A stretch of DNA of 41,528 nt. Origin: Bacillota bacterium. Lineage in GTDB: Bacteria > Bacillota > Sulfobacillia > JAJZYS01 > JAJYTV01. The stretch covers positions 1-41,528 of the forward strand of contig JAJZQO010000017.1 in NCBI GenBank assembly GCA_021847575.1. The letters run 5' to 3'. Positions 3 to 9,105 of the stretch are shown here, piece by piece (the stretch's first letter is position 1; every line of letters begins with the position of its first letter). The notes under the pieces were generated by a model. That model saw nothing but the letters and a program-made list of their open reading frames with translations, searched no databases and was not told the origin of the DNA. Made by a program: the position numbers and the translations under genes.

Positions 3-374
3 ACGCAGCTTGGCCTCATGGCAACCGTCTTCACGCTGCTTGCTGTTCTGATCCTGTACGGCGCGCGCGACCCGCTTGCCACGCTGCATCAGGGCCCTGC
101 GGGTGAACGCGAAGAGGTGAGCGCGGTCGAGAGCCTGGAGCGCAGGTTCGGGGCTGTGCTGACAGAGCGCGAACTCGAGGTCGGGCGGCTCGCAGTCGGA
201 GGCGTATCGAACCGGGAGATCGCCGAGAAGCTCTATCTTTCGGAGAACACGGTCAAGACGCATCTCAAAAGCGTCTTCCGCAAGACGGGTTGCGCCAATC
301 GCAACGAGCTTTTCCGGAGTCTCGTGGGCGACGCGGCGACGCTTGATGCGCGCGGTCTCCACAAGGGACGGTAG
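3..374 (+). CDS. LuxR-family response regulator, C-terminal part
   Basis: The reading frame is open to the left edge, so this is probably the C-terminal end of a longer protein. An ATG at 18 is possible but has no clear ribosome binding site. What is visible is a hydrophobic segment (VFTLLAVLILYG), a short linker, and a complete GerE/LuxR helix-turn-helix of about 60 residues with the typical LTERELEV, SNREIAEKL and SENTVKTHL motifs. This domain binds DNA as a dimer. A membrane segment directly before it suggests a multi-pass membrane-anchored LuxR regulator whose sensor part lies outside the window. The target genes are unknown. The following gene on this strand is more than 700 bases away, so it is not an operon partner. 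Confidence 0.85.
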   Translation, partial: TQLGLMATVFTLLAVLILYGARDPLATLHQGPAGEREEVSAVESLERRFGAVLTERELEVGRLAVGGVSNREIAEKLYLSENTVKTHLKSVFRKTGCANRNELFRSLVGDAATLDARGLHKGR

Positions 375-1107
375 GGAGCGTGATGTCAACCGCTGCCCGA
401 GTTGTTCGGTGGTGCGCGTTGCCCAGTGCCGACCTGCGATGGCTGTTCTCGGAATCCGCTTGCGCGGGTGCCGACCATCCTCGCGCATGAGATGTGGCCG
501 GCGAACCACTGCTGGGAGTCGCCCCATGCCTCTCGCGGCAAGCCGCTTGCGCACTCGCATGGGACCAGTATCAGCCCCACCAGCGGAAGTCTCGCGACTT
601 CCTCCAGGGCCTTGGACCGTCGCGGCCCGTTCTGGCGTTAGCCCCGCCGATAGCGTGAAGGGCTGCCGGAGGCTGTTCAGTATGCACGGTTGCGCCACCC
701 TCACGGGCGCGTCCTCATTCAGTCGCATGCTCCTCAGCGGCGGTGGGATAGCGGAAAGTCCGATCCCACTTGCGTTTTTGGAGCGTCGGGAGGTGGCGGC
801 GGTGGCGGCGCGATCATCATCCGTCGCGGCTGGGGGCGGCAGAGGATGCCTTGGTGGCGCTTCCGGGTCCTTGTGCGGGTCCTCGGGGGTCCTTTCGTCG
901 CGCCAGAGCGCTGAATGGGCATGGTCAACCGTGCACGCGGATCCATGCAACCAACACGCAGAGCGTCCCGCTCGACCGCCAGAGGCTCGCCCGGGGCGGC
1001 CCGGCCGGTGCAGACCCGCAGGGGATGACCTTCGGGTGTCGAAATGCGACAATGGGTTAGGCTAAATTAATGAAGCCGTGGACCCGGCTGCGGAAGGAGC
1101 CACAAGG
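375..1107. other. long intergenic stretch, no supported gene
   Basis: About 730 bases without a convincing gene. A 240-codon frame on the plus strand and shorter frames on the minus strand read as low-complexity, Arg/Ser/Pro/Gly-rich translations with no family resemblance and no good ribosome binding site. A short GGC/GGT-rich tract lies near 790-815. I looked for tRNA, tmRNA, RNase P and SRP RNA signatures and saw none. An AT-richer patch around 1050-1075 could hold the promoter of the downstream cytochrome operon, but no clear -35/-10 pair is visible. Confidence 0.5.
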
Positions 1108-1233
1108 ATGCACCCTTGGGAACTCTTCAACCTCACCGCGTCCGACATTGGCATAGTCCTCCTGATGGTCGTCGTGTTCATTCTGGCGCTCTGGCTGCCG
1201 TACCCCCACGGCCAGGAGAGGAGAAAGCCATGA
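1108..1233 (+). CDS. 41-residue single-span membrane peptide
   Basis: A small gene at the head of the cytochrome b operon. It has a clear Shine-Dalgarno sequence (AAGGAG at 1094-1099, 8 bases before the ATG), and its TGA overlaps the ATG of the cytochrome gene as ATGA. The product starts MHPWELFNL, has one hydrophobic helix of about 20 residues (IGIVLLMVVVFILALWL) and ends in a short charged tail. It has no Cys and only two His. The good start signal, the four-base overlap and the membrane helix together indicate a real gene. By analogy with small subunits of cytochrome complexes (PetG/PetL/PetN class), it may stabilise the cytochrome b complex. That role is inference, because there is too little sequence to assign a family. 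Confidence 0.7.
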   Translation: MHPWELFNLTASDIGIVLLMVVVFILALWLPYPHGQERRKP

Positions 1234-1859
1234 ACTGGACGAGACGGGTACGTTCGTGGCTCGAGCGCGAGTTGCCGCTCGAGGACCTGCTCCCGGACCA
1301 GCTGCCGGAGTACGTGCGGTCTTACGTATACCTCTTCGGTGTGCTGACGATCGCAAGCTTTCTCATGCTCGTCGTTTCCGGCATCGTGCTCGTCCTGTTC
1401 GGTCCCGATTGGTGGCACATCTCGCCGGTGGGACACTTCATCAACAGCGTCCACTTCTGGTCCGTGCAGGCGTTCTTCTTCTTCATGGTGCTGCACCTCT
1501 GGGCCCAGTTCTTCATGATGGCCTGGCGCGGTGGTCGCGGGGCCAATTGGGTGACGGGCGTGCTCCTCTTCGTCTCGTCGATCCTGGCCGCACTCACCGG
1601 TTTTCTCTCGCAGCAGAACTTCGACTCCCAGTGGATCGCGCTGCAGGGCAAGGATGCATTCAACGCACTGGGTGTGGGGGCATTTTTCAACCTGATCAAT
1701 TTCGGCCAGATGTACGGCTTGCACATCTTTCTGCTGCCGCTCGTGATCGCGGTCCTGATCGGCATCCATCTCTTCCTCGTGCGCTCCAAGGGCGTCGTGA
1801 CACCCTACGAACCCAAGCCGAGGGGGGGCAAGACGCGTGGGCAGACCCGCCATGAGTGA
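1230..1859 (+). CDS. cytochrome b6-like N-terminal cytochrome b
   Basis: A 209-residue membrane protein matching the N-terminal, di-haem half of cytochrome b/b6, the quinol-oxidising core of bc1 and b6f complexes. Four histidines sit where the b haems are bound: H75 and H89 (14 apart) in the second helix and H165 and H180 (15 apart) in the fourth. The 14/15 spacing is the b6-type pattern. Four hydrophobic spans are evident at roughly 31-57, 76-98, 108-127 and 162-184. The ATG overlaps the upstream peptide gene and the end overlaps the next gene, so expression is coupled. The Qo-site PEWY segment belongs to the C-terminal half of cytochrome b (subunit IV). It is not in this protein or its neighbours, and no Rieske or c-type cytochrome gene is adjacent. 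Electron donor and acceptor are therefore uncertain. Confidence 0.9.
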   Translation: MNWTRRVRSWLERELPLEDLLPDQLPEYVRSYVYLFGVLTIASFLMLVVSGIVLVLFGPDWWHISPVGHFINSVHFWSVQAFFFFMVLHLWAQFFMMAWRGGRGANWVTGVLLFVSSILAALTGFLSQQNFDSQWIALQGKDAFNALGVGAFFNLINFGQMYGLHIFLLPLVIAVLIGIHLFLVRSKGVVTPYEPKPRGGKTRGQTRHE

Positions 1860-2787
1860 GCGCTCGCGCAAGCAGTACCGCGGTTTGCGGATGGTCGAGG
1901 CGGACCTTGTCAAGGAGCTCGCGTGGGCTCTTGCCGCCGTCGCCGTCCTCGTGCTGCTGCTCGCGGCGTTGTTCTCGAGTTCGGATGAGCCGACGCTGAC
2001 GGCGCAGCAGGTGGCCATTCAGAACCCTTTGCAGCTTGTAGCGACCGCCCTGCACATCCTCGACGGACAGAACGCCATCGCGGGTTACGGTCCACCCTAC
2101 AACCGGGGCAGCGGATCCCTTCAGTCGATCGGAGGTTTCTCCCCGCAAGCCTGGGCGGGGGTGACGATCCCAATCGACGCGCCGAGGGTGTTCGTGCTCG
2201 ACCCCCTGCGCCGCATGCGCTACCTGGATCCTGCCCTCGGTCCCGCGCTCGCCACCTTCGAATCGGCGAGTCCTTCCAGGCAGCGGGCATGGGAGACGGC
2301 CTACCTCAAGGCGCTCGGCAAGGCGACCGTCAGCAGCGGACGGGTGGTGCTGCCCAGGGTCAGCGCGGGCCCGCTGCCAACGCTGCTCAGCGCCTACCTG
2401 AACCTCGCGCGGACCGGTGCTCTCGAGGCGACAGTCAACCTCAGCGGCAGGATCTACCAGACCGACTTCACGCGCGCTCTCCTCCTGCTGCAGGGCACAC
2501 CGCTGCAAACCAAGGCCGCGAGCGAGGACCTGCTCGGCAGCCAGTGGGGCATGATGAAGGAGCCAGGCAACTATCCGGGTGCCGTCTGGCTCTGGTTCTA
2601 CACCCTGCTCTACCAGATCCCACCGTACAACTCGTCGCCGGTAGCTGATCTGCTGGTAGGCGTCACGGTGGGACTTGCGACGTTTGTCCTTCTGTTTGTC
2701 CCATGGATCCCGGGCCTGAGGGACATCCCCAAGGTGATCCCTGTCTACCGCCTGATCTGGCGGCGTCACTACCATGGGCCCAAATAG
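1852..2787 (+). CDS. bitopic cytochrome-b-associated membrane protein, function unknown
   Basis: Predicted 311 residues from the ATG at 1852, which overlaps the end of cytochrome b by 8 bases; an in-frame ATG at 1837 would add five residues. One hydrophobic span lies near residues 22-42 and a second near 258-283, leaving about 215 residues probably outside the membrane. That domain has no cysteine, no CxxCH and only one histidine, so it is unlikely to carry haem or an iron-sulfur cluster. Notable stretches are YGPPYN, QWGMMKEPGNYPG and, after the last span, FVPWIPGLRDIPK followed by PVYRLIW. It is not subunit IV: that family has three helices and a PEWY motif. From memory, similar proteins accompany short cytochrome b genes in other Gram-positive and Chloroflexi-like genomes. 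A structural or electron-transfer accessory role is inferred from the operon only. Confidence 0.8.
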   Translation: MSERSRKQYRGLRMVEADLVKELAWALAAVAVLVLLLAALFSSSDEPTLTAQQVAIQNPLQLVATALHILDGQNAIAGYGPPYNRGSGSLQSIGGFSPQAWAGVTIPIDAPRVFVLDPLRRMRYLDPALGPALATFESASPSRQRAWETAYLKALGKATVSSGRVVLPRVSAGPLPTLLSAYLNLARTGALEATVNLSGRIYQTDFTRALLLLQGTPLQTKAASEDLLGSQWGMMKEPGNYPGAVWLWFYTLLYQIPPYNSSPVADLLVGVTVGLATFVLLFVPWIPGLRDIPKVIPVYRLIWRRHYHGPK

Positions 2788-3037
2788 CCGCCGGCCTCTG
2801 CCCCTGCCGCGGCCGCCCCGGGCTGTTTGGCTGGTGCCTGGGCTCGTGTGCGGTGTCGTCGGGACGGGACTGCTCTACGAGGGCGCGACCGCCGTACGGC
2901 TTCTCGACCTCGCGATCGGTGCCCCGCTCTTCGCTCTCGGGCTGCTCGTGGTCGGCTGGCCCTTCGTACTCGCCATGGCGCACGTCTCGCAGGCGGGACA
3001 GCGTCGTCGCGCACGCCGCCGGTCTTCCCGGCTCTAG
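2774..3037 (+). CDS. small two-helix membrane protein
   Basis: 87 residues, with an ATG that overlaps the end of the preceding gene by 14 bases. The N-terminus is Pro/Arg-rich, then come two hydrophobic segments (about residues 17-36 and 44-68) and a very Arg-rich tail (RRRARRRSSR). The positive tails at both ends predict an N-in, C-in hairpin. No family is recognised. It is the last gene of the cytochrome b operon and is followed by a long gap. It could be a further small subunit or assembly factor of that complex. The overlap and membrane character support it being real, but codon evidence alone is modest. Confidence 0.6.
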   Translation: MGPNSRRPLPLPRPPRAVWLVPGLVCGVVGTGLLYEGATAVRLLDLAIGAPLFALGLLVVGWPFVLAMAHVSQAGQRRRARRRSSRL

Positions 3038-3482
3038 CTGTGGGGAGAACGTCAAGGAGCCTCCAGTAGACGCAAGCTGGAAGCATGAATTGCGAACAGG
3101 CGACTCCCAGCGGATCGTCGGCCACGTGTCATGCACCGGCGGCCCCTCAGTGACATATCCATATCTGCTGGGGTATTGAGGGTCGAAGCGGGCCCTCTGG
3201 CTTTGGCCCGCCGCGTTGCGACTATGCCGCAGGTCCGGCCGCTTCAGGACCAGCTGCGCTGGGGGAGTAGAGCATGCCTGTTCGGCGTCGCTCCGAGGGC
3301 TCCTGCACCGGCAACGACAAGCGCGCTGACGCAGACTGCCGCCCTCTGCACGGGCGTCGAGGTGCGCCCACACCGGCTACCTCCGACCTCGACAGCGCGG
3401 GCGGGTCGTCGCCGCGCCCCGCCGCTGTCTGCTCAGCGGTCGTCAAACGGCCTCCGCGCCTTCGACCTGCCCTGCGGCACCG
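3038..3482. other. intergenic stretch with a stem-loop
   Basis: 445 bases between the cytochrome operon and spoVR. Frames here give no recognisable protein. A 7-base-pair stem (GCGGGCC 3188-3194 with GGCCCGC 3205-3211, 10-base loop) could end the cytochrome operon, but no T-run follows. No consensus promoter for spoVR could be picked out. A sporulation-sigma promoter is possible but not demonstrable by eye. Confidence 0.4.
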
Positions 3483-4685
3483 ATGAGGCGTGACAGGGTG
3501 CTCGAGCGCCTGCGCGCGCGGGCGGAGGAGTTCGGGCTGGCGCCCGGGGAGATCCTGATGCAGCGCCTGCCGCCGCAGGCGCTGTGGAGTCTCGCGTCCT
3601 ACGGATTCTTCGGCCGCTACGGACACTGGTCGCGGGGCAAGGCGTACCAGCGCCTCAAGGTCCAGGGTGAGCTCGGCCTGCAGCGCATCTACGAGCTGAT
3701 CGTGCACACGGAGCCGCCGCAGGCGTTCGTCCTTGCGGGCAACCGGCCGATCGAGGACATGCTCGTCTCCGCCCATGTCCTCGGGCACGCCGACTTCTTC
3801 CACCGCAGCGCGTGGCTCAGGAAGCGCGATCCGGACGTGGGCAGGCGGGTCCTTTTGCACCGGCAGCGGATCTCGGCTTATGTCGCGGAGCATGGGCAGG
3901 ATGCCGTGGAGTCGCTTCTGGACGCAGCCCTCCTGATCGAAGGCCATGTGGCCCGTCTCGGCCCGGAGGATCTCTTGGGCGTCATCGCGCGGCAGGCCCC
4001 GCTCGCCGCCTGGCAGCGGGACTGCCTCGACATGGTGCGCGAGGAGGCGCTCTATTTTCAGGCGCAGGAGCGCACCAAGGTTCTCAACGAGGGCTGGGCT
4101 TGTTTCTGGCACCTGCGCATCCTGCGCAGGGAAGACCTCCCTGCCAGGGACCGGCTGGACGTCGCCCTTCTGCACAGCCAGCTGGTCGCTATGCCTCCCG
4201 GACGCTTGAACCCCTACACCCTCGGTCTTGACGTGCTGGAGCAGTTCGCCCGCGAGGCTGGCGCGAGGCCAGGCGAAGCACCGGAGGGAGAGGCGCTCGA
4301 AGCCATGCTCGAGCTCGCGGCGTTCGCCGATGACCGCTCGCTGATCCGCGACCACCTGCGGCAGGAAACCGTCGACCGACTGGGGATCACCGTGCCGACG
4401 ACGGAGGGCGGGGAGAGCCGCGACCTTGCGGACGTCCGCCGCGAGATCCTGCGCCAGGTCGGGGGTGCGTGGCGGCCCGCCGTGGAGGTAGAGCAGGGGG
4501 TGGCGGGCTGCACCCTGCGCCTTCGCCACCTGCATGACGGCCGCGACCTGGACCTTCCCGACGCGGAGGGGGTGCTCAGCGAAGTGCAGCGGCTCTGGGG
4601 CGCCCCGGTGCTCCTCGAGACGATGGTGGGCGGGCAGAGGGTCTGCCTGCGCCACGACGGGCAGGAGGTGCGGCGGGACGGGTGA
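3483..4685 (+). CDS. spoVR: SpoVR family protein
   Basis: 400 residues that align with SpoVR/YcgB from the start. Hallmarks are RYGHWSRGK (about 40-48), the EDMLVSAHVLGHADFFHRS block (near 85-104), the NEGWACFWH signature (near 204-212) and NPYTLGLDVL (near 242-251). In Bacillus SpoVR takes part in spore cortex formation; in enterobacteria its homologue YcgB is expressed with the YeaG kinase. The biochemical activity is not established. The ATG at 3483 is the only usable start before an in-frame stop at 3327, apart from a GTG at 3498, and neither has a strong Shine-Dalgarno. The protein is shorter than the usual 470-510 residues, mainly at the C-terminus. prkA lies 2.6 kb downstream on the same strand, as expected for this pair, but two metabolic genes lie between them. 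Confidence 0.93.
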   Translation: MRRDRVLERLRARAEEFGLAPGEILMQRLPPQALWSLASYGFFGRYGHWSRGKAYQRLKVQGELGLQRIYELIVHTEPPQAFVLAGNRPIEDMLVSAHVLGHADFFHRSAWLRKRDPDVGRRVLLHRQRISAYVAEHGQDAVESLLDAALLIEGHVARLGPEDLLGVIARQAPLAAWQRDCLDMVREEALYFQAQERTKVLNEGWACFWHLRILRREDLPARDRLDVALLHSQLVAMPPGRLNPYTLGLDVLEQFAREAGARPGEAPEGEALEAMLELAAFADDRSLIRDHLRQETVDRLGITVPTTEGGESRDLADVRREILRQVGGAWRPAVEVEQGVAGCTLRLRHLHDGRDLDLPDAEGVLSEVQRLWGAPVLLETMVGGQRVCLRHDGQEVRRDG

Positions 4686-4749
4686 TCGGCTGGCAGGAAT
4701 CGGAGAATTGCACGCGAAGCCAGGGCCAGATGCTGCGGGAGGTGGCAAG

Positions 4750-6315
4750 ATGCCAGTTCAGCTGACTCCACTCAGGTTTCTCGCACAAAGCGAGCGGCGC
4801 GAGCCCGAAAAGACCGCCATCGTGTGTGGCGAAACCCGCCTGACCTACCGCGCTTACGCCGATCGCGTCCGGCGGCTGATCGGTGCCCTCAAGGGACTCG
4901 GCGTCGAGCACGGCGACCGCGTCGCCTACCTCGGTCTCAACTGTCATCGTCTTCTCGAGCTCTACTACGCGGTGCCGGCGCGCGGAGCGATCCTGAGCCC
5001 CTTGAACGTGCGGCTGACGGCTCCGGAGCTGCTTTTCATCCTGCAGGACCTCGAACCGAAGCTGCTCGTCACCGACCAGACGCTTCTGCCGATGGCCAAG
5101 GCCTTGCAGGCTCGGGCAGGTGTGCCCATCGTGCTGCTTTCCGGGCCGCCGGAGACCGAGGGCGTCCTGTTCTATGAGGATATTCTGGCCGGCGCGGAGC
5201 CCATCGACCTGATGGCCGGGGATGTCGAGGAGTCCGACGTGGCCGAGATCTTCTATACGAGCGGCACGACGGGCAGGCCCAAGGGCGTCCAGCTGACGCA
5301 CCGCAACCTGTACCTGCACGCTCTGGGCGTTGCCGTTTCGGCGCCGATCCATGCCGACGAGGTGCAACTTGTCGGCACCGTGCCGCTCTTCCATGTCAAC
5401 GGCTGGGGTGGGCCCCAATTCATCGTGGCGCAGGCGGCGACGCAGGTGGTGACGTCCCGCTTCGACGCCGGCGAGTTCTACCGCCTTGTCGAGGCCGAGG
5501 GCGTCACGCTGGCGATGCTCGTGCCCACGATGCTCGCGGCGGTGCTGAACTATCCCGGACGCCGGAGCCACGACACCTCGAGCCTGCGCCGCGTGATCAT
5601 CGGAGGTGCGCCGCCGCCGCCTGCGCTGATCCGCGAGGCCCGCGAGGAGCTGCAGGTGGACTGCTCGGTGGGCTACGGGCTCTCCGAGACCTGCCCTGTC
5701 CTTACCCTTGCGACCATCAAGGACAGCCTCAAGGACGCGCCGCTCGAGGAGCAGTACCAGCTGCGCGCCATGACGGGCCTGCCGATCGTTGGCTGCGACC
5801 TGCGCGTGGTGCAGGAGGACGGCCTGGAGGTCGCGCACGACGGCAAGGCGGTCGGCGAGATCTGGGTGCAGGGCGACATGGTGTTCGACGGCTACTGGCG
5901 TCGGCCCGAGGAGACGGCGCAGGCGTTTTCGGACGGCTGGTTCCGCACCGGCGACATGGCGGTTGTGGAACCTTCGGGATACCTCAGGATCGTGGATCGC
6001 AAGAAGGACATCATCATTTCCGGCGGCGAAAACATCAGCTCGGTCGAGGTGGAGGACGCCCTCTACACCCACTCGGCGGTGCTGGAGGCCGCCGTGGTGG
6101 CGCGGGCGGACCAGCGCTGGGGCGAGGTGCCGTACGCGTTCGTCTCTTTGCGGCCGGGCGCGGTTGCCACGGGTGAGGAGATCCTCGACCATCTCAAGGG
6201 ACGCCTCGCCGGCTTCAAGATCCCGCACGGGATCGAGATCCTGCCCGAGCTGCCCAAGACGGGCACGGGCAAGGTGGTCAAGCTGCAGCTGCGCGAGTCG
6301 CTCAAGAATCGCTGA
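4750..6315 (+). CDS. AMP-forming acyl-CoA synthetase
   Basis: A 521-residue member of the adenylate-forming family, which activates a carboxylic acid to its acyl-AMP and then to acyl-CoA. The phosphate-binding loop YTSGTTGRPKG is at about 169-179. The A5 motif GYGLSET, the A7 TGD, the A8 region KKDIIISGGENIS and the C-terminal PKTGTGK with its catalytic lysine are all present, so both half-reactions should work. The start is the ATG at 4750, with GGGAGG at 4737-4742; a longer open frame upstream overlaps spoVR and is not needed. Length is normal for medium/long-chain fatty acyl-CoA ligases. The substrate cannot be read from sequence. The leucine-type operon further right lacks such an enzyme, so it may feed that pathway. 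The hydrolase gene follows 22 bases later. Confidence 0.92.
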   Translation: MPVQLTPLRFLAQSERREPEKTAIVCGETRLTYRAYADRVRRLIGALKGLGVEHGDRVAYLGLNCHRLLELYYAVPARGAILSPLNVRLTAPELLFILQDLEPKLLVTDQTLLPMAKALQARAGVPIVLLSGPPETEGVLFYEDILAGAEPIDLMAGDVEESDVAEIFYTSGTTGRPKGVQLTHRNLYLHALGVAVSAPIHADEVQLVGTVPLFHVNGWGGPQFIVAQAATQVVTSRFDAGEFYRLVEAEGVTLAMLVPTMLAAVLNYPGRRSHDTSSLRRVIIGGAPPPPALIREAREELQVDCSVGYGLSETCPVLTLATIKDSLKDAPLEEQYQLRAMTGLPIVGCDLRVVQEDGLEVAHDGKAVGEIWVQGDMVFDGYWRRPEETAQAFSDGWFRTGDMAVVEPSGYLRIVDRKKDIIISGGENISSVEVEDALYTHSAVLEAAVVARADQRWGEVPYAFVSLRPGAVATGEEILDHLKGRLAGFKIPHGIEILPELPKTGTGKVVKLQLRESLKNR

Positions 6316-6337: not shown

Positions 6338-7123
6338 GTGAAGGCAAGGGAAGTGGAGCTGCAGGGCGAGGGCCGCGCGATCGAGGGGTACCTCGCGGAG
6401 CCCGAGGCTCCGGGCACGCATCCGTCCCTGATCGTCGTGCACGAGATCTGGGGCCTCGACGACCATATACGCGACGTGGCCCGCCGTTTCGCCGACGCGG
6501 GATTCGTTGCCCTCGCGCCTGACCTCTATACGGGGACCTGGCGCGAGGCGATGCAGCCAGACCGCATCATGGCCGGCATGAAGTTCCTGCGCGAGGCACC
6601 GCCCGAGGTGCAGCGGGACCCGAGTACGCTCGGTCCCCTGCTGGACGCGCGACCGCCCGAAGAGGCGTCTGCCCTGCGCACGCTGATGCGGGTGATGACG
6701 CCTGGGCAGCGCGCTTCGTTCGCCCAGGACCTGCGCGGCGCGGTCCGGTTCCTGCGGGGACTGCCGCAGGTGGACGCCGGGCGCGTCGCCTGCCTCGGCT
6801 TCTGCATGGGCGGCGGCATCACGGCCCAACTCTCGACGATCGAGCCGGACCTGTGGGCCGCCGTGATCTTCTACGGCGAGAATCCGCCCATCGACCACGT
6901 CGGGGAGATCAGGGCCAAGGTGCTGGGGCTCTACGGCGGCGACGACGTCCGCATCACGGCCAATGTCCCCGAGTTCGCCGATGCGATGGCCGCCGCGGGC
7001 AAGCGGTTCTCCCATCACGTCTATGCGGGTGCGCCCCACGCGTTCTTCAACGACACGCGGCCGAGTTACCGCCCGGAAGCGGCGGCCGACGCCATGCGCC
7101 GCGTCCTCGAGTTCCTCGACTGA
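6338..7123 (+). CDS. dienelactone hydrolase family protein
   Basis: 261 residues with an alpha/beta-hydrolase fold of the dienelactone hydrolase type. The catalytic triad is Cys156 in GFCMGGG, Asp202 (or Asp203) in GGDD and His234 in APHAFF; Glu36 in HEIWGL is the residue that activates the cysteine in this family. It starts at a GTG with GGGAGG at 6326-6331, 22 bases after the acyl-CoA ligase, so the two are probably cotranscribed. An insertion at about residues 66-128 (WREAMQPD to MRVMTPGQ) extends the cap region compared with the classic 235-residue enzyme. The family cleaves cyclic or activated esters. No other chlorocatechol-pathway gene is nearby, so the true substrate is unknown and need not be dienelactone. 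Confidence 0.9.
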   Translation: MKAREVELQGEGRAIEGYLAEPEAPGTHPSLIVVHEIWGLDDHIRDVARRFADAGFVALAPDLYTGTWREAMQPDRIMAGMKFLREAPPEVQRDPSTLGPLLDARPPEEASALRTLMRVMTPGQRASFAQDLRGAVRFLRGLPQVDAGRVACLGFCMGGGITAQLSTIEPDLWAAVIFYGENPPIDHVGEIRAKVLGLYGGDDVRITANVPEFADAMAAAGKRFSHHVYAGAPHAFFNDTRPSYRPEAAADAMRRVLEFLD

Positions 7124-7162
7124 CACCTCAGCCTCGATCCGCCGCATATCCTGCTAAGGGAA

Positions 7163-7192
7163 CGCGCTGCTTCGCCTCGGCGGGGCAGCGCG
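7163..7192. terminator. possible stem-loop between hydrolase gene and prkA
   Basis: CGCGCTGC (7163-7170) pairs with GCAGCGCG (7185-7192) around a 14-base loop that can itself fold. It lies 40 bases after the hydrolase stop and 50 bases before the prkA start. No T-run follows, so it may be a Rho-type or attenuating hairpin or a processing site rather than a strong intrinsic terminator. Confidence 0.35.
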
Positions 7193-7242
7193 ATCTAGCC
7201 AGATCTGCGTGCTCGGCGGAGCTCGAGGCGGGAGGGGTATCG

Positions 7243-9105
7243 TTGGACATCGCTGAGCGGATCGGGCGCGGCGAACCGCCGGCCGGCCAGCGGGAGTGGC
7301 GCGGCGACTTTTCGCAGTACATCCAGATCTGCAGGCGCCAGCCGCATGTCGCGGATCTCGCGCACCGGCGCGTTCACCGCATGCTCGTGGCGGCGGGCGG
7401 GGCGAAGGGCCTGTGCGAAGGCCAGCTCTTCGGCTTGGACGCCGCGTTTTCGGAGATCGACGCCTTCTTCGCCGCCGCCGCACAGGGGCTCGAGGTGCGG
7501 CGGCGCATCCTGTTGCTGCTCGGGCCCGTCGGGGGCGGCAAGTCCAGCTTCGTGGAGATCATGAAGCGCGGCTTGGAGCGCTTCTCGGTGGAGGAAGAGG
7601 GGAGTCTCTACGCCATCGCGGGCTGCCCGATGCGGGAGGAGCCTCTGCATCTGCTGACGGGGGAACTGCGCAGGGCGGCGGAGCAGGAGCTTGGCGTGGT
7701 CGTCGAGGGTGACCTCTGCCCTGTCTGCCGCATGCGCTACGGCGGGCTCACGGGCAAGGACCTCCTCGCCGTGCCCGTCGAGCGGGTGACGATCAGCGAG
7801 GAGAGGCGCCGCGGCGTGGGTACCTTTGCGCCGTCCGACCCGAAATCCCAGGACATCGCGGAACTGACCGGCTCCCTCGATCTCGCCGCCATTTCGGACT
7901 ACGGCGTCGAGTCCGACCCCAGGGCGTTCCGCTTCGACGGCGAGCTCAACGTGGCGAACCGGGGCCTGATGGAGTTCGTCGAACTGCTGAAGTGCGACGA
8001 GCGGTTCCTCTATACCCTGCTGACTCTGGCGCAGGAAGGCAGGTTCAAGACAGGACGCTATGCGCTGATGTACGCGGACGAGGTGGTGGTCGCCCACTCG
8101 AACGAGGCCGAATACCAGACCTTCATCCACGATGCGCGCAACGAGGCGCTCAAGGATCGCATGGTGGTGGTGCGCATGCCCTACGCCCTGCGCGTCAAGG
8201 ACGAACGGCGGATCTACGAGCGCCTGGTCGCCGATCGCCGGCGGCCCGACACGCACATCGCTCCGCACGCGATCGAGGCCGCCGCCACCTTCGCCGTCCT
8301 GACGCGGCTCGAGCAGAGTCGCCGTCGCGAGATCGGCCAGCTGCAGAAGCTCAGGCTCTACGACGGGGAGGAGGTGCCGGGACTCGGCCCGCGCGACCGC
8401 CTGGACCTGCAGCGCGAGAGTAGCCGGGAAGGCATGCATGGCGTCTCGCCACGCTACGTGGTCAACCAGCTGGCGCGTGCCCTCGTGCGTTCGGACGGCT
8501 GCCTGACGGTCGGGGCAACGCTGCGCGCCCTGTACGAAGGGCTGCAAAGCCATCCTTCGATCGAGGCCTCGGACCAGGAAACCTACCGCAACCTCTTGCA
8601 CGAGGTGGCGGAGGACCTCGGGCGTCGCCTCGAAGCCGAAGTCTACCCGTATTTCGTGGACGCCTTCGAGGACAATTTGGCCGCACTATGGCACCGCTAC
8701 CTCGAGTCGCTCGACGCCTATCTGACGGCCCTGCGCATCGGCGAGCCGGCGCCCGACGACCTGGAGCGGCGCCTGCGCAGCGTCGAGGAGGAGGTCGGGG
8801 TGACGGAGGCGCAAAAGCGCGCCTTCCGCGAGGAGATCGGCGTGTGGGCCGCCAGCATGCGCAGCCGCGGCCAGGTCTCTGCCCTTCCCCAGCACCCGGC
8901 CCTGCGCACAGCGCTCGAGCGGCATCTCTACAGCCGCATCCAGACGCTCGTGCAGGGTGCCCTCCAGGATGTGGCGCCAGGCGAGGCGATCGGCGCGCGC
9001 ATCACTGCGGTGCGGCAAAGACTGCTGCAGGAGGGATACTGTCCGCGCTGCAGCGAGGATCTTCTGCAGGCGCTCGGCGGACCGGTTCCCTTCGCCCTCG
9101 GCTGA
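7243..9105 (+). CDS. prkA: PrkA serine protein kinase / AAA+ ATPase
   Basis: 620 residues, close to the 631 of Bacillus subtilis PrkA, and homologous to enterobacterial YeaG. An AAA+ module comes first, with Walker A GPVGGGKS at 94-101, and the kinase-like domain is in the C-terminal half. Two CxxC pairs (CPVC near 160 and CPRC near the C-terminus) are typical of the family. PrkA influences sporulation entry and stress responses; both kinase and ATP-dependent protease activities have been proposed. The start is a TTG at 7243 with GGAGGGG six bases upstream. The frame is open for 390 bases more, but that stretch overlaps the hydrolase gene and lacks family similarity. The usual partner yhbH (DUF444) is not between spoVR and prkA or next to either. 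Confidence 0.95.
   Translation: MDIAERIGRGEPPAGQREWRGDFSQYIQICRRQPHVADLAHRRVHRMLVAAGGAKGLCEGQLFGLDAAFSEIDAFFAAAAQGLEVRRRILLLLGPVGGGKSSFVEIMKRGLERFSVEEEGSLYAIAGCPMREEPLHLLTGELRRAAEQELGVVVEGDLCPVCRMRYGGLTGKDLLAVPVERVTISEERRRGVGTFAPSDPKSQDIAELTGSLDLAAISDYGVESDPRAFRFDGELNVANRGLMEFVELLKCDERFLYTLLTLAQEGRFKTGRYALMYADEVVVAHSNEAEYQTFIHDARNEALKDRMVVVRMPYALRVKDERRIYERLVADRRRPDTHIAPHAIEAAATFAVLTRLEQSRRREIGQLQKLRLYDGEEVPGLGPRDRLDLQRESSREGMHGVSPRYVVNQLARALVRSDGCLTVGATLRALYEGLQSHPSIEASDQETYRNLLHEVAEDLGRRLEAEVYPYFVDAFEDNLAALWHRYLESLDAYLTALRIGEPAPDDLERRLRSVEEEVGVTEAQKRAFREEIGVWAASMRSRGQVSALPQHPALRTALERHLYSRIQTLVQGALQDVAPGEAIGARITAVRQRLLQEGYCPRCSEDLLQALGGPVPFALG

What the first reader, a model, noticed from the sequence alone, without database searches (positions are those of the whole stretch)
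1108..3037. Rieske-less cytochrome b operon with three accessory membrane proteins
A b6-type cytochrome with all four haem ligands is encoded in an overlapping operon. The operon has no Rieske protein, no c-type cytochrome and no PEWY-bearing C-terminal half. Instead there are a 41-residue peptide, a 311-residue bitopic protein and an 87-residue hairpin protein. This may be a quinone-reactive di-haem module that works differently from bc1/b6f, perhaps moving electrons across the membrane or serving as a quinone reductase.
Basis: partly seen in the sequence, partly recalled or inferred. Interest (0 to 1): 0.65.

Follow-up and report, generated by a model that had tools for sequence, protein, structure and literature searches.

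The report
Rieske-less cytochrome b complex of acidophiles
Many acid-loving bacteria carry a stripped-down, rebuilt relative of the cytochrome bc1/b6f respiratory complex that lacks its usual iron-sulfur partner and appears to be switched on during growth on iron, so it may be a missing electron link between iron and the membrane quinone pool.

Summary
The cytochrome is a b6-type di-haem protein; all four haem histidines are invariant in 81 sequences. The module (41-aa peptide + cytochrome + 311-aa protein) recurs in Bacillota, Actinomycetota, Chloroflexota and Dormibacterota, mostly from acidic sites; the 87-aa protein is a lineage extra.

One correction: the 311-aa protein is not an unrelated accessory. 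It is the diverged cytochrome b C-terminal half (helices E and F) with an insertion of about 190 residues just before the PEWY position. In 29 of 80 loci it is fused to the cytochrome, and the fused model matches bc1/bcc cytochrome b (Z 19.6). The p-side quinol site is rebuilt: LPW and PEWY are gone.

It seems to work without Rieske: complete Sulfobacillus acidophilus has this as its only cytochrome b and no bc-type Rieske among the hits read. The window genome holds a separate, self-contained Rieske/cytochrome b-c complex.

The orphan Sulfobacillus cytochrome b was noted before (Justice 2014). Published RNA-seq, matched by gene order, shows it about 30-fold up on Fe(II). Best guess: a quinone-linked transmembrane electron conduit of the iron respiratory chain; direction and outer partner unproven.

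The parts
1092..1099 (+). ribosome-binding-like GGAAGGAG, 8 nt before the first ATG
   Evidence: read from the sequence
1108..1233 (+). 41-aa one-helix peptide (pepA), conserved small subunit
   Evidence: found in 62 of 80 loci directly before the cytochrome; M20, F24, A27, P31, P33 at least 90% conserved
1230..1859 (+). b6-type di-haem cytochrome, 209 aa
   Evidence: PF13631, PF00033; best solved relatives are cytochromes b6
1452..1769 (+). span of the four haem-ligand codons: H75 (1452), H89 (1494), H165 (1722), H180 (1767)
   Evidence: invariant in 81 sequences and in the 8 distant members
1608..1637 (+). rebuilt p-side quinol-site motif SQQNFDSQWI in place of LPW-DQ-x-x-YWA
1852..2787 (+). 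311-aa protein (bit): diverged cytochrome b C-terminal half / subunit IV equivalent
   Evidence: fusion in 29 of 80 loci; colinear profile matches; model of the fusion
1906..1974 (+). helix E equivalent (residues 19-41)
1996..2571 (+). p-side insertion of about 190 residues (49-240), mostly helical, no Cys, no conserved His
2581..2715 (+). helix F region (residues 244-288) with WLWFY where canonical proteins have PEWY
2774..3037 (+). 87-aa hairpin protein (hp), lineage-specific
   Evidence: 10 of 80 loci

Best explanation
Supported by sequence and model: the operon encodes a reduced relative of the b6f/bc1 core, made of a b6-type di-haem subunit, a subunit IV equivalent whose E-F loop carries an outward-facing helical domain of about 190 residues, and a one-helix peptide. 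The p-side quinol site is rebuilt, and no Rieske or c-type cytochrome belongs to it. Inferred: the two b haems form a wire across the membrane between a menaquinone site on the cytoplasmic side (haem bH end) and a one-electron partner on the outer, acidic side (haem bL end) that docks on or near the inserted domain. Inferred with weaker support: in acidophiles this wire belongs to the iron respiratory chain and stands in for the bc1 complex as the link between the quinone pool and Fe(II)-derived electrons (the uphill branch), possibly running outward to Fe(III) when oxygen is absent. The confidence is for the whole statement; the structural part alone is about 0.85.
For: Structure: invariant haem ligands; fusion of the two subunits in 29 of 80 loci; colinear helix E and F profile matches with clean controls; model of the Acidithrix fusion matched by bc1/bcc cytochrome b, Z 19.6 over 280 residues; family separate from canonical cytochrome b, support 100/99. 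Rieske independence. Iron link: S. acidophilus TPY 'pet I operon', same gene order as ctaA-cytb-bit in DSM 10332, 150 to 4771 RPKM (petB-1) and 471 to 6029 (petC-1) on FeSO4 versus sulfur (PMC5114278); the module is the only cytochrome b of that species. In S. thermosulfidooxidans an adjacent pair of 'cytochrome b/b6 domain' genes falls when Fe(II) is exhausted (PMC6315122). Identified carriers Acidithrix, Acidimicrobium and Sulfobacillus are iron oxidisers that also reduce Fe(III) (PMC8790237; identities).
Against: No activity, spectrum or mutant exists. The TPY RNA-seq has one replicate, and the genes were matched by order and annotation, not by sequence. Sulfocyanin, an obvious outer partner, co-occurs in the window's class (strong hits in 11 of 22 carriers, 0 of 79 others) but not in Acidimicrobiia (3 of 15 against 49 of 133). 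Many carriers are soil bacteria with no known iron metabolism, and many have a canonical bc complex as well. Without a Rieske-like bifurcating partner it is unclear how pmf would drive uphill electron flow.
Confidence: 0.4

Rival explanations
1. Outward conduit: menaquinol is oxidised near haem bH and the electrons leave through haem bL to soluble Fe(III) or another outer acceptor. That would make it the unidentified ferric reductase of Gram-positive acidophiles.
For: All isolated Sulfobacillus species, Acidithrix and Acidimicrobium reduce Fe(III) and the enzymes are unknown (PMC4378227, PMC8790237). A polar p-side motif replaces the hydrophobic LPW in the window family. No fixed redox partner gene, as expected for a small soluble acceptor.
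Against: Transcripts follow Fe(II), and the likely S. thermosulfidooxidans pair falls under high Fe(III) and no Fe(II), although that culture was aerobic. Quinol oxidation on the inner side with electrons going out would consume pmf. Invariant H63 is kept in only one of eight distant members.
Confidence: 0.25
2. Quinone-to-quinone or redox-balancing module: both ends act on quinones, or the haems feed a sensor, with no iron role. The nearby DevS/DevR-like genes in some loci would regulate it by oxygen or redox state.
For: DevS-like GAF histidine kinases lie near in 18 loci and DevR-like regulators in 14; universal stress proteins and pyridoxamine-oxidase-like genes join them in the Acidithrix group. 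Carriers include soil Solirubrobacterales and Dormibacterota.
Against: Such regulators are common and their orientation and distance vary; no DosR-type box was found upstream. Strong Fe(II) induction in S. acidophilus.
Confidence: 0.18
3. Ordinary bc complex in disguise: it borrows the Rieske protein of the canonical complex made from the second locus.
For: The window genome and seven other carriers do encode a Rieske protein.
Against: Those Rieske genes sit beside their own cytochrome b. S. acidophilus has no other cytochrome b, and the three of its four Rieske-domain proteins that were read lack a membrane anchor. LPW, PEWY and the cd1 Tyr are lost, and the insertion lies in the E-F loop, on the side where Rieske docks.
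Confidence: 0.06
4. A decaying copy of a bc complex without function.
For: The canonical quinol-site motifs are lost.
Against: 47 invariant columns in the cytochrome and 24 in the 311-aa protein over several phyla, intact frames, conserved order, fusions, and high published expression.
Confidence: 0.02

Closest known systems
Orphan petB-like di-haem cytochrome b of Sulfobacillus (Justice 2014, PMC4378227; S. thermotolerans, PMC6803676; 'pet I operon' of S. acidophilus TPY, PMC5114278)
   Same: Same family: the S. acidophilus DSM 10332 module is a homologue with the same gene pair. The papers already say that Rieske and cytochrome c are absent from the operon and suggest another function.
   Different: The papers treat the cytochrome alone; in TPY its partner was listed as a cytochrome c subunit, although the DSM 10332 counterpart has no CxxCH. 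The C-half identity, small peptide, fusions, rebuilt site and multi-phylum spread are not described in the papers found.
Cytochrome b6f core (PetB + PetD + one-helix small subunits)
   Same: Split b6 / subunit IV layout, 14/15 His spacing, single-helix small subunit; b6 proteins are the best solved sequence relatives.
   Different: No Rieske, no cytochrome f or c, no haem-ci Cys in the window family, no PEWY or LPW, large insertion in subunit IV.
Actinobacterial/mitochondrial cytochrome b of bcc/bc1
   Same: Fused full-length form in Actinomycetota; fold match Z 17-20.
   Different: Helices G and H are not part of it; the p-side site is rebuilt; no Rieske or c partner.
bc1 complex I (petI operon) of Acidithiobacillus ferrooxidans
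   Same: Proposed place in the iron chain: bc1 run in reverse, the role cited for petI (PMC6803676, PMC4378227); the S. acidophilus operon of that name is Fe(II)-induced.
   Different: A. ferrooxidans uses a full bc1 complex (general knowledge and PMC4378227, PMC6803676).

Membership tests
Cytochrome b/b6 N-terminal family (PF00033 / PF13631) | profile match over the curated cut-off | tested here: met
   44.4 bits (cut-off 27) and 31.5 bits (cut-off 27.2)
Cytochrome b/b6 N-terminal family (PF00033 / PF13631) | two His pairs for two b haems, spacing 14 and 14/15 | tested here: met
   H75/H89, H165/H180, invariant
Cytochrome b C-terminal half / subunit IV (PF00032) | direct profile match | tested here: not met
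   no PF00032 hit for the 311-aa protein
Cytochrome b C-terminal half / subunit IV (PF00032) | helices E and F in cytochrome b arrangement after the N-half | tested here: met
   colinear profile matches, fusions, model of the fusion; by inference from a homologue's model, no experimental structure
Complex III / b6f (bc complex) | Rieske protein in the same operon | tested here: not met
   the window genome's bc-type Rieske belongs to another locus
Complex III / b6f (bc complex) | c-type cytochrome or cytochrome f partner in the operon | tested here: not met
   no CxxCH in the four proteins
Complex III / b6f (bc complex) | quinol-site motifs PEWY and LPW | tested here: not met
   WLWFY and SQQNF instead; note that the window genome's own canonical protein also has PLWF, so PEWY alone is not decisive
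b6-type with haem ci | Cys before the helix A Gly (YC-GG) | tested here: not met
   Leu35 in the window; Cys only in the distant L121/L122 members
c-type cytochrome (the 'petC-1' annotation of the S. acidophilus TPY homologue) | CxxCH | tested here: not met
   absent from the window protein and from the DSM 10332 counterpart (read); the TPY protein itself was not read
Iron-chain quinone oxidoreductase (function) | quinone- and iron-dependent electron transfer | not testable with these tools
   only published transcript levels (PMC5114278, PMC6315122)

The most novel reading that the evidence does not exclude
A Rieske-independent reverse Q-cycle. At a rebuilt p-side quinone site an outer cupredoxin or cytochrome, docked on the inserted domain, supplies the high-potential electron that Rieske would handle, so that Fe(II) electrons and b-haem electrons jointly reduce menaquinone, driven by the steep pH gradient of acidophiles.
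Probability: 0.12. Interest if true: 0.88.

Novelty: new variant of a known kind. Interest (0 to 1): 0.6.

Why it matters
As far as is generally known, Q-cycle enzymes need a Rieske protein. A widespread bc-derived complex that has dropped it and rebuilt its quinol site shows which parts of the core are separable. It is also a concrete candidate for the unknown quinone link of iron metabolism in Sulfobacillus and iron-cycling Actinomycetota, which matter in acid mine drainage and bioleaching, and it can be tested in organisms that grow in culture.

Tried and rejected
Rieske in trans: the window genome's second Rieske (C50) sits in a SUF-type operon and is ferredoxin-type. Sulfocyanin as a general partner: holds in the window's class, fails in Acidimicrobiia. 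Conserved neighbours beyond the module: none general. DosR-type box upstream: none found. A structure search with the window's 311-aa model alone gave no meaningful match; its pTM is only 0.59. The inserted domain was not searched on its own (prediction cap reached). No solved relative of the 311-aa protein by sequence. Invariant H63 as a metal site: kept in only one of eight distant members. 'R207 H208 E209' in the universal list are alignment-gap artefacts. Plasmid-borne 'cytochrome b N-terminal' proteins fall with canonical cytochrome b in the tree. Sigma-70 promoter scan of the operon region: nothing.

Full report
CHECK. The window is contig C20 of a 2.86 Mb genome (99.4% complete). The four overlapping genes exist at the stated coordinates. 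The 209-aa protein is a cytochrome b6-like protein; the other three have no meaningful Pfam or NCBIfam hit.

A CONSERVED MODULE. One scan of 84,980 species genomes gave 258 relatives of the cytochrome, of which the best 80 were kept. The 41-aa peptide, the cytochrome and the 311-aa protein stay together (79 of 80 loci have the 311-aa protein, 62 a detectable peptide); the 87-aa protein is kept only in 10 close relatives. Carriers include Bacillota, Chloroflexota, Dormibacterota and several Actinomycetota orders, mostly from bogs, palsas, fens and what look like mine-drainage MAGs (habitats read from record titles and partly from memory). In the window's own class 22 of 101 sampled genomes carry it, including all nine sampled members of its order; in the class of Acidithrix 15 of 148 do, two of them only as distant relatives.

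THE 311-AA PROTEIN IS THE MISSING HALF. In 29 of 80 loci the cytochrome and the 311-aa protein form one open frame, in the order of a full-length cytochrome b. Profile comparison with canonical C-halves gave two colinear matches: residues 1-36 (1-48 with more members) to helix E (P 8e-4, then 9e-5) and 248-286 to helix F just after the Trp of PEWY (P 0.005; 0.001 with the distant subfamily as master), against controls at P 0.1-0.2. Each match alone is weak; order, register and fusion make the case. The AlphaFold model of the Acidithrix fusion (no templates, pLDDT 78.9, pTM 0.74) is matched best by bc1/bcc cytochrome b in both structure searches (Z 19.6, 280 residues, rmsd 4.3, model 8-512 against chain 17-489). 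The fit to bovine cytochrome b ends at residue 317, beyond helix F. Between E and F lies a mostly helical insertion of about 190 residues without Cys or a conserved His. The distant L121/L122 subfamily still has GPWY where canonical proteins have PEWY, a plausible intermediate.

A REBUILT QUINOL SITE. Across 81 family members, 8 distant members and 6 canonical proteins, the four His and several structural Gly/Arg/Trp/Pro residues are shared, but LPW is gone, the Tyr of the canonical YW pair is Gln134 in practically all members, and Asp142 is a new near-universal residue. The haem-ci Cys is absent in the window family. The family with its subfamilies splits from canonical cytochrome b with 100/99 support, so this is an old branch, not a recent relic; the tree program warns that some long branches meet.

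NO RIESKE. The window genome has a separate canonical complex: Rieske (L005 9950-10633) followed by a 466-aa cytochrome b fused to a c domain; its other Rieske is in a SUF-type operon. Seven more carriers show a Rieske-motif gene beside a second cytochrome b. In the complete S. acidophilus genome the module is the only cytochrome b found. Of its four Rieske-domain loci three were read, and none has the membrane anchor of a bc Rieske; the fourth, C1:2962625, an open frame of 124 aa, was not read.

FUNCTION. Justice et al. [quoted passage not shown] The S. thermotolerans genome paper likewise finds only a cytochrome b subunit, in two copies, without the bc1 complex (PMC6803676). In S. acidophilus TPY the 'pet I operon' lists TPY_3081 (cytochrome oxidase assembly), 3080 (petB-1) and 3079 ('petC-1'), the same order as ctaA-cytb-bit in DSM 10332. 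On FeSO4 versus sulfur petB-1 rises from 150 to 4771 RPKM and petC-1 from 471 to 6029 (PMC5114278; one RNA-seq replicate, RT-PCR of petC-1 4.9-fold). In S. thermosulfidooxidans an adjacent pair of 'cytochrome b/b6 domain' genes falls when Fe(II) is exhausted by Leptospirillum (PMC6315122); that this pair is the module is likely but was not checked by sequence. These data tie the module to iron growth. Direction is open: expression follows Fe(II) rather than Fe(III), which favours the uphill branch, while the shared ability of carriers to reduce Fe(III) by unknown enzymes (PMC8790237) keeps the outward conduit alive. No universal p-side partner was found. Shown: gene content, conservation, C-half relation, lack of Rieske in the operon. 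Inferred: haem occupancy, quinone site near haem bH, outer partner, direction.

VERDICT. A real and widespread variant of the b6f/bc1 core. The orphan cytochrome b is known in one genus. As far as the papers found here show, the recognition of its C-half partner, small subunit, fusions, rebuilt site and multi-phylum spread is new.

Noticed in passing
L126 4868-7871 (S. acidophilus DSM 10332): The partner gene corresponding to TPY_3079 is annotated in the literature as a cytochrome c subunit (petC-1), but the DSM 10332 protein has no CxxCH; a likely mis-annotation.
   Followed up: partly
L005 10630-12030: The window genome's canonical complex has a cytochrome b fused to a C-terminal c domain (CATCH) and carries PLWF instead of PEWY.
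   Followed up: partly
L121 4519-6195 and L122 2142-3818: A distant subfamily in Acidimicrobiia keeps the haem-ci type Cys (YCMGG) and GPWY, so it may bind a third haem.
   Followed up: partly
L027 8001-11043: Split and fused-looking copies of the module lie in tandem in one genome.
   Followed up: no
L042, L051, L056, L059, L036, L084 flanks: DevR-like regulators and universal stress proteins near the module, and in some of these loci pyridoxamine-oxidase-like and PhoU-like genes; it recalls a DosR-type neighbourhood.
   Followed up: partly
window 3483-4685 and about 7000-9105: A SpoVR gene (Pfam) and a probable PrkA-type kinase (read from the sequence only) are separated by an acyl-CoA ligase and a dienelactone-hydrolase-like gene.
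   Followed up: no
window 3-374: The contig starts inside a gene ending in a LuxR-type HTH with a possible membrane part, upstream of the operon; a candidate regulator.
   Followed up: no
L109 4869-5978, L110 4836-5948: Plasmid-borne cytochrome b N-terminal proteins in Pseudarthrobacter and Streptomyces, each following a small hypothetical gene; on the Streptomyces plasmid heavy-metal ATPases flank them.
   Followed up: partly
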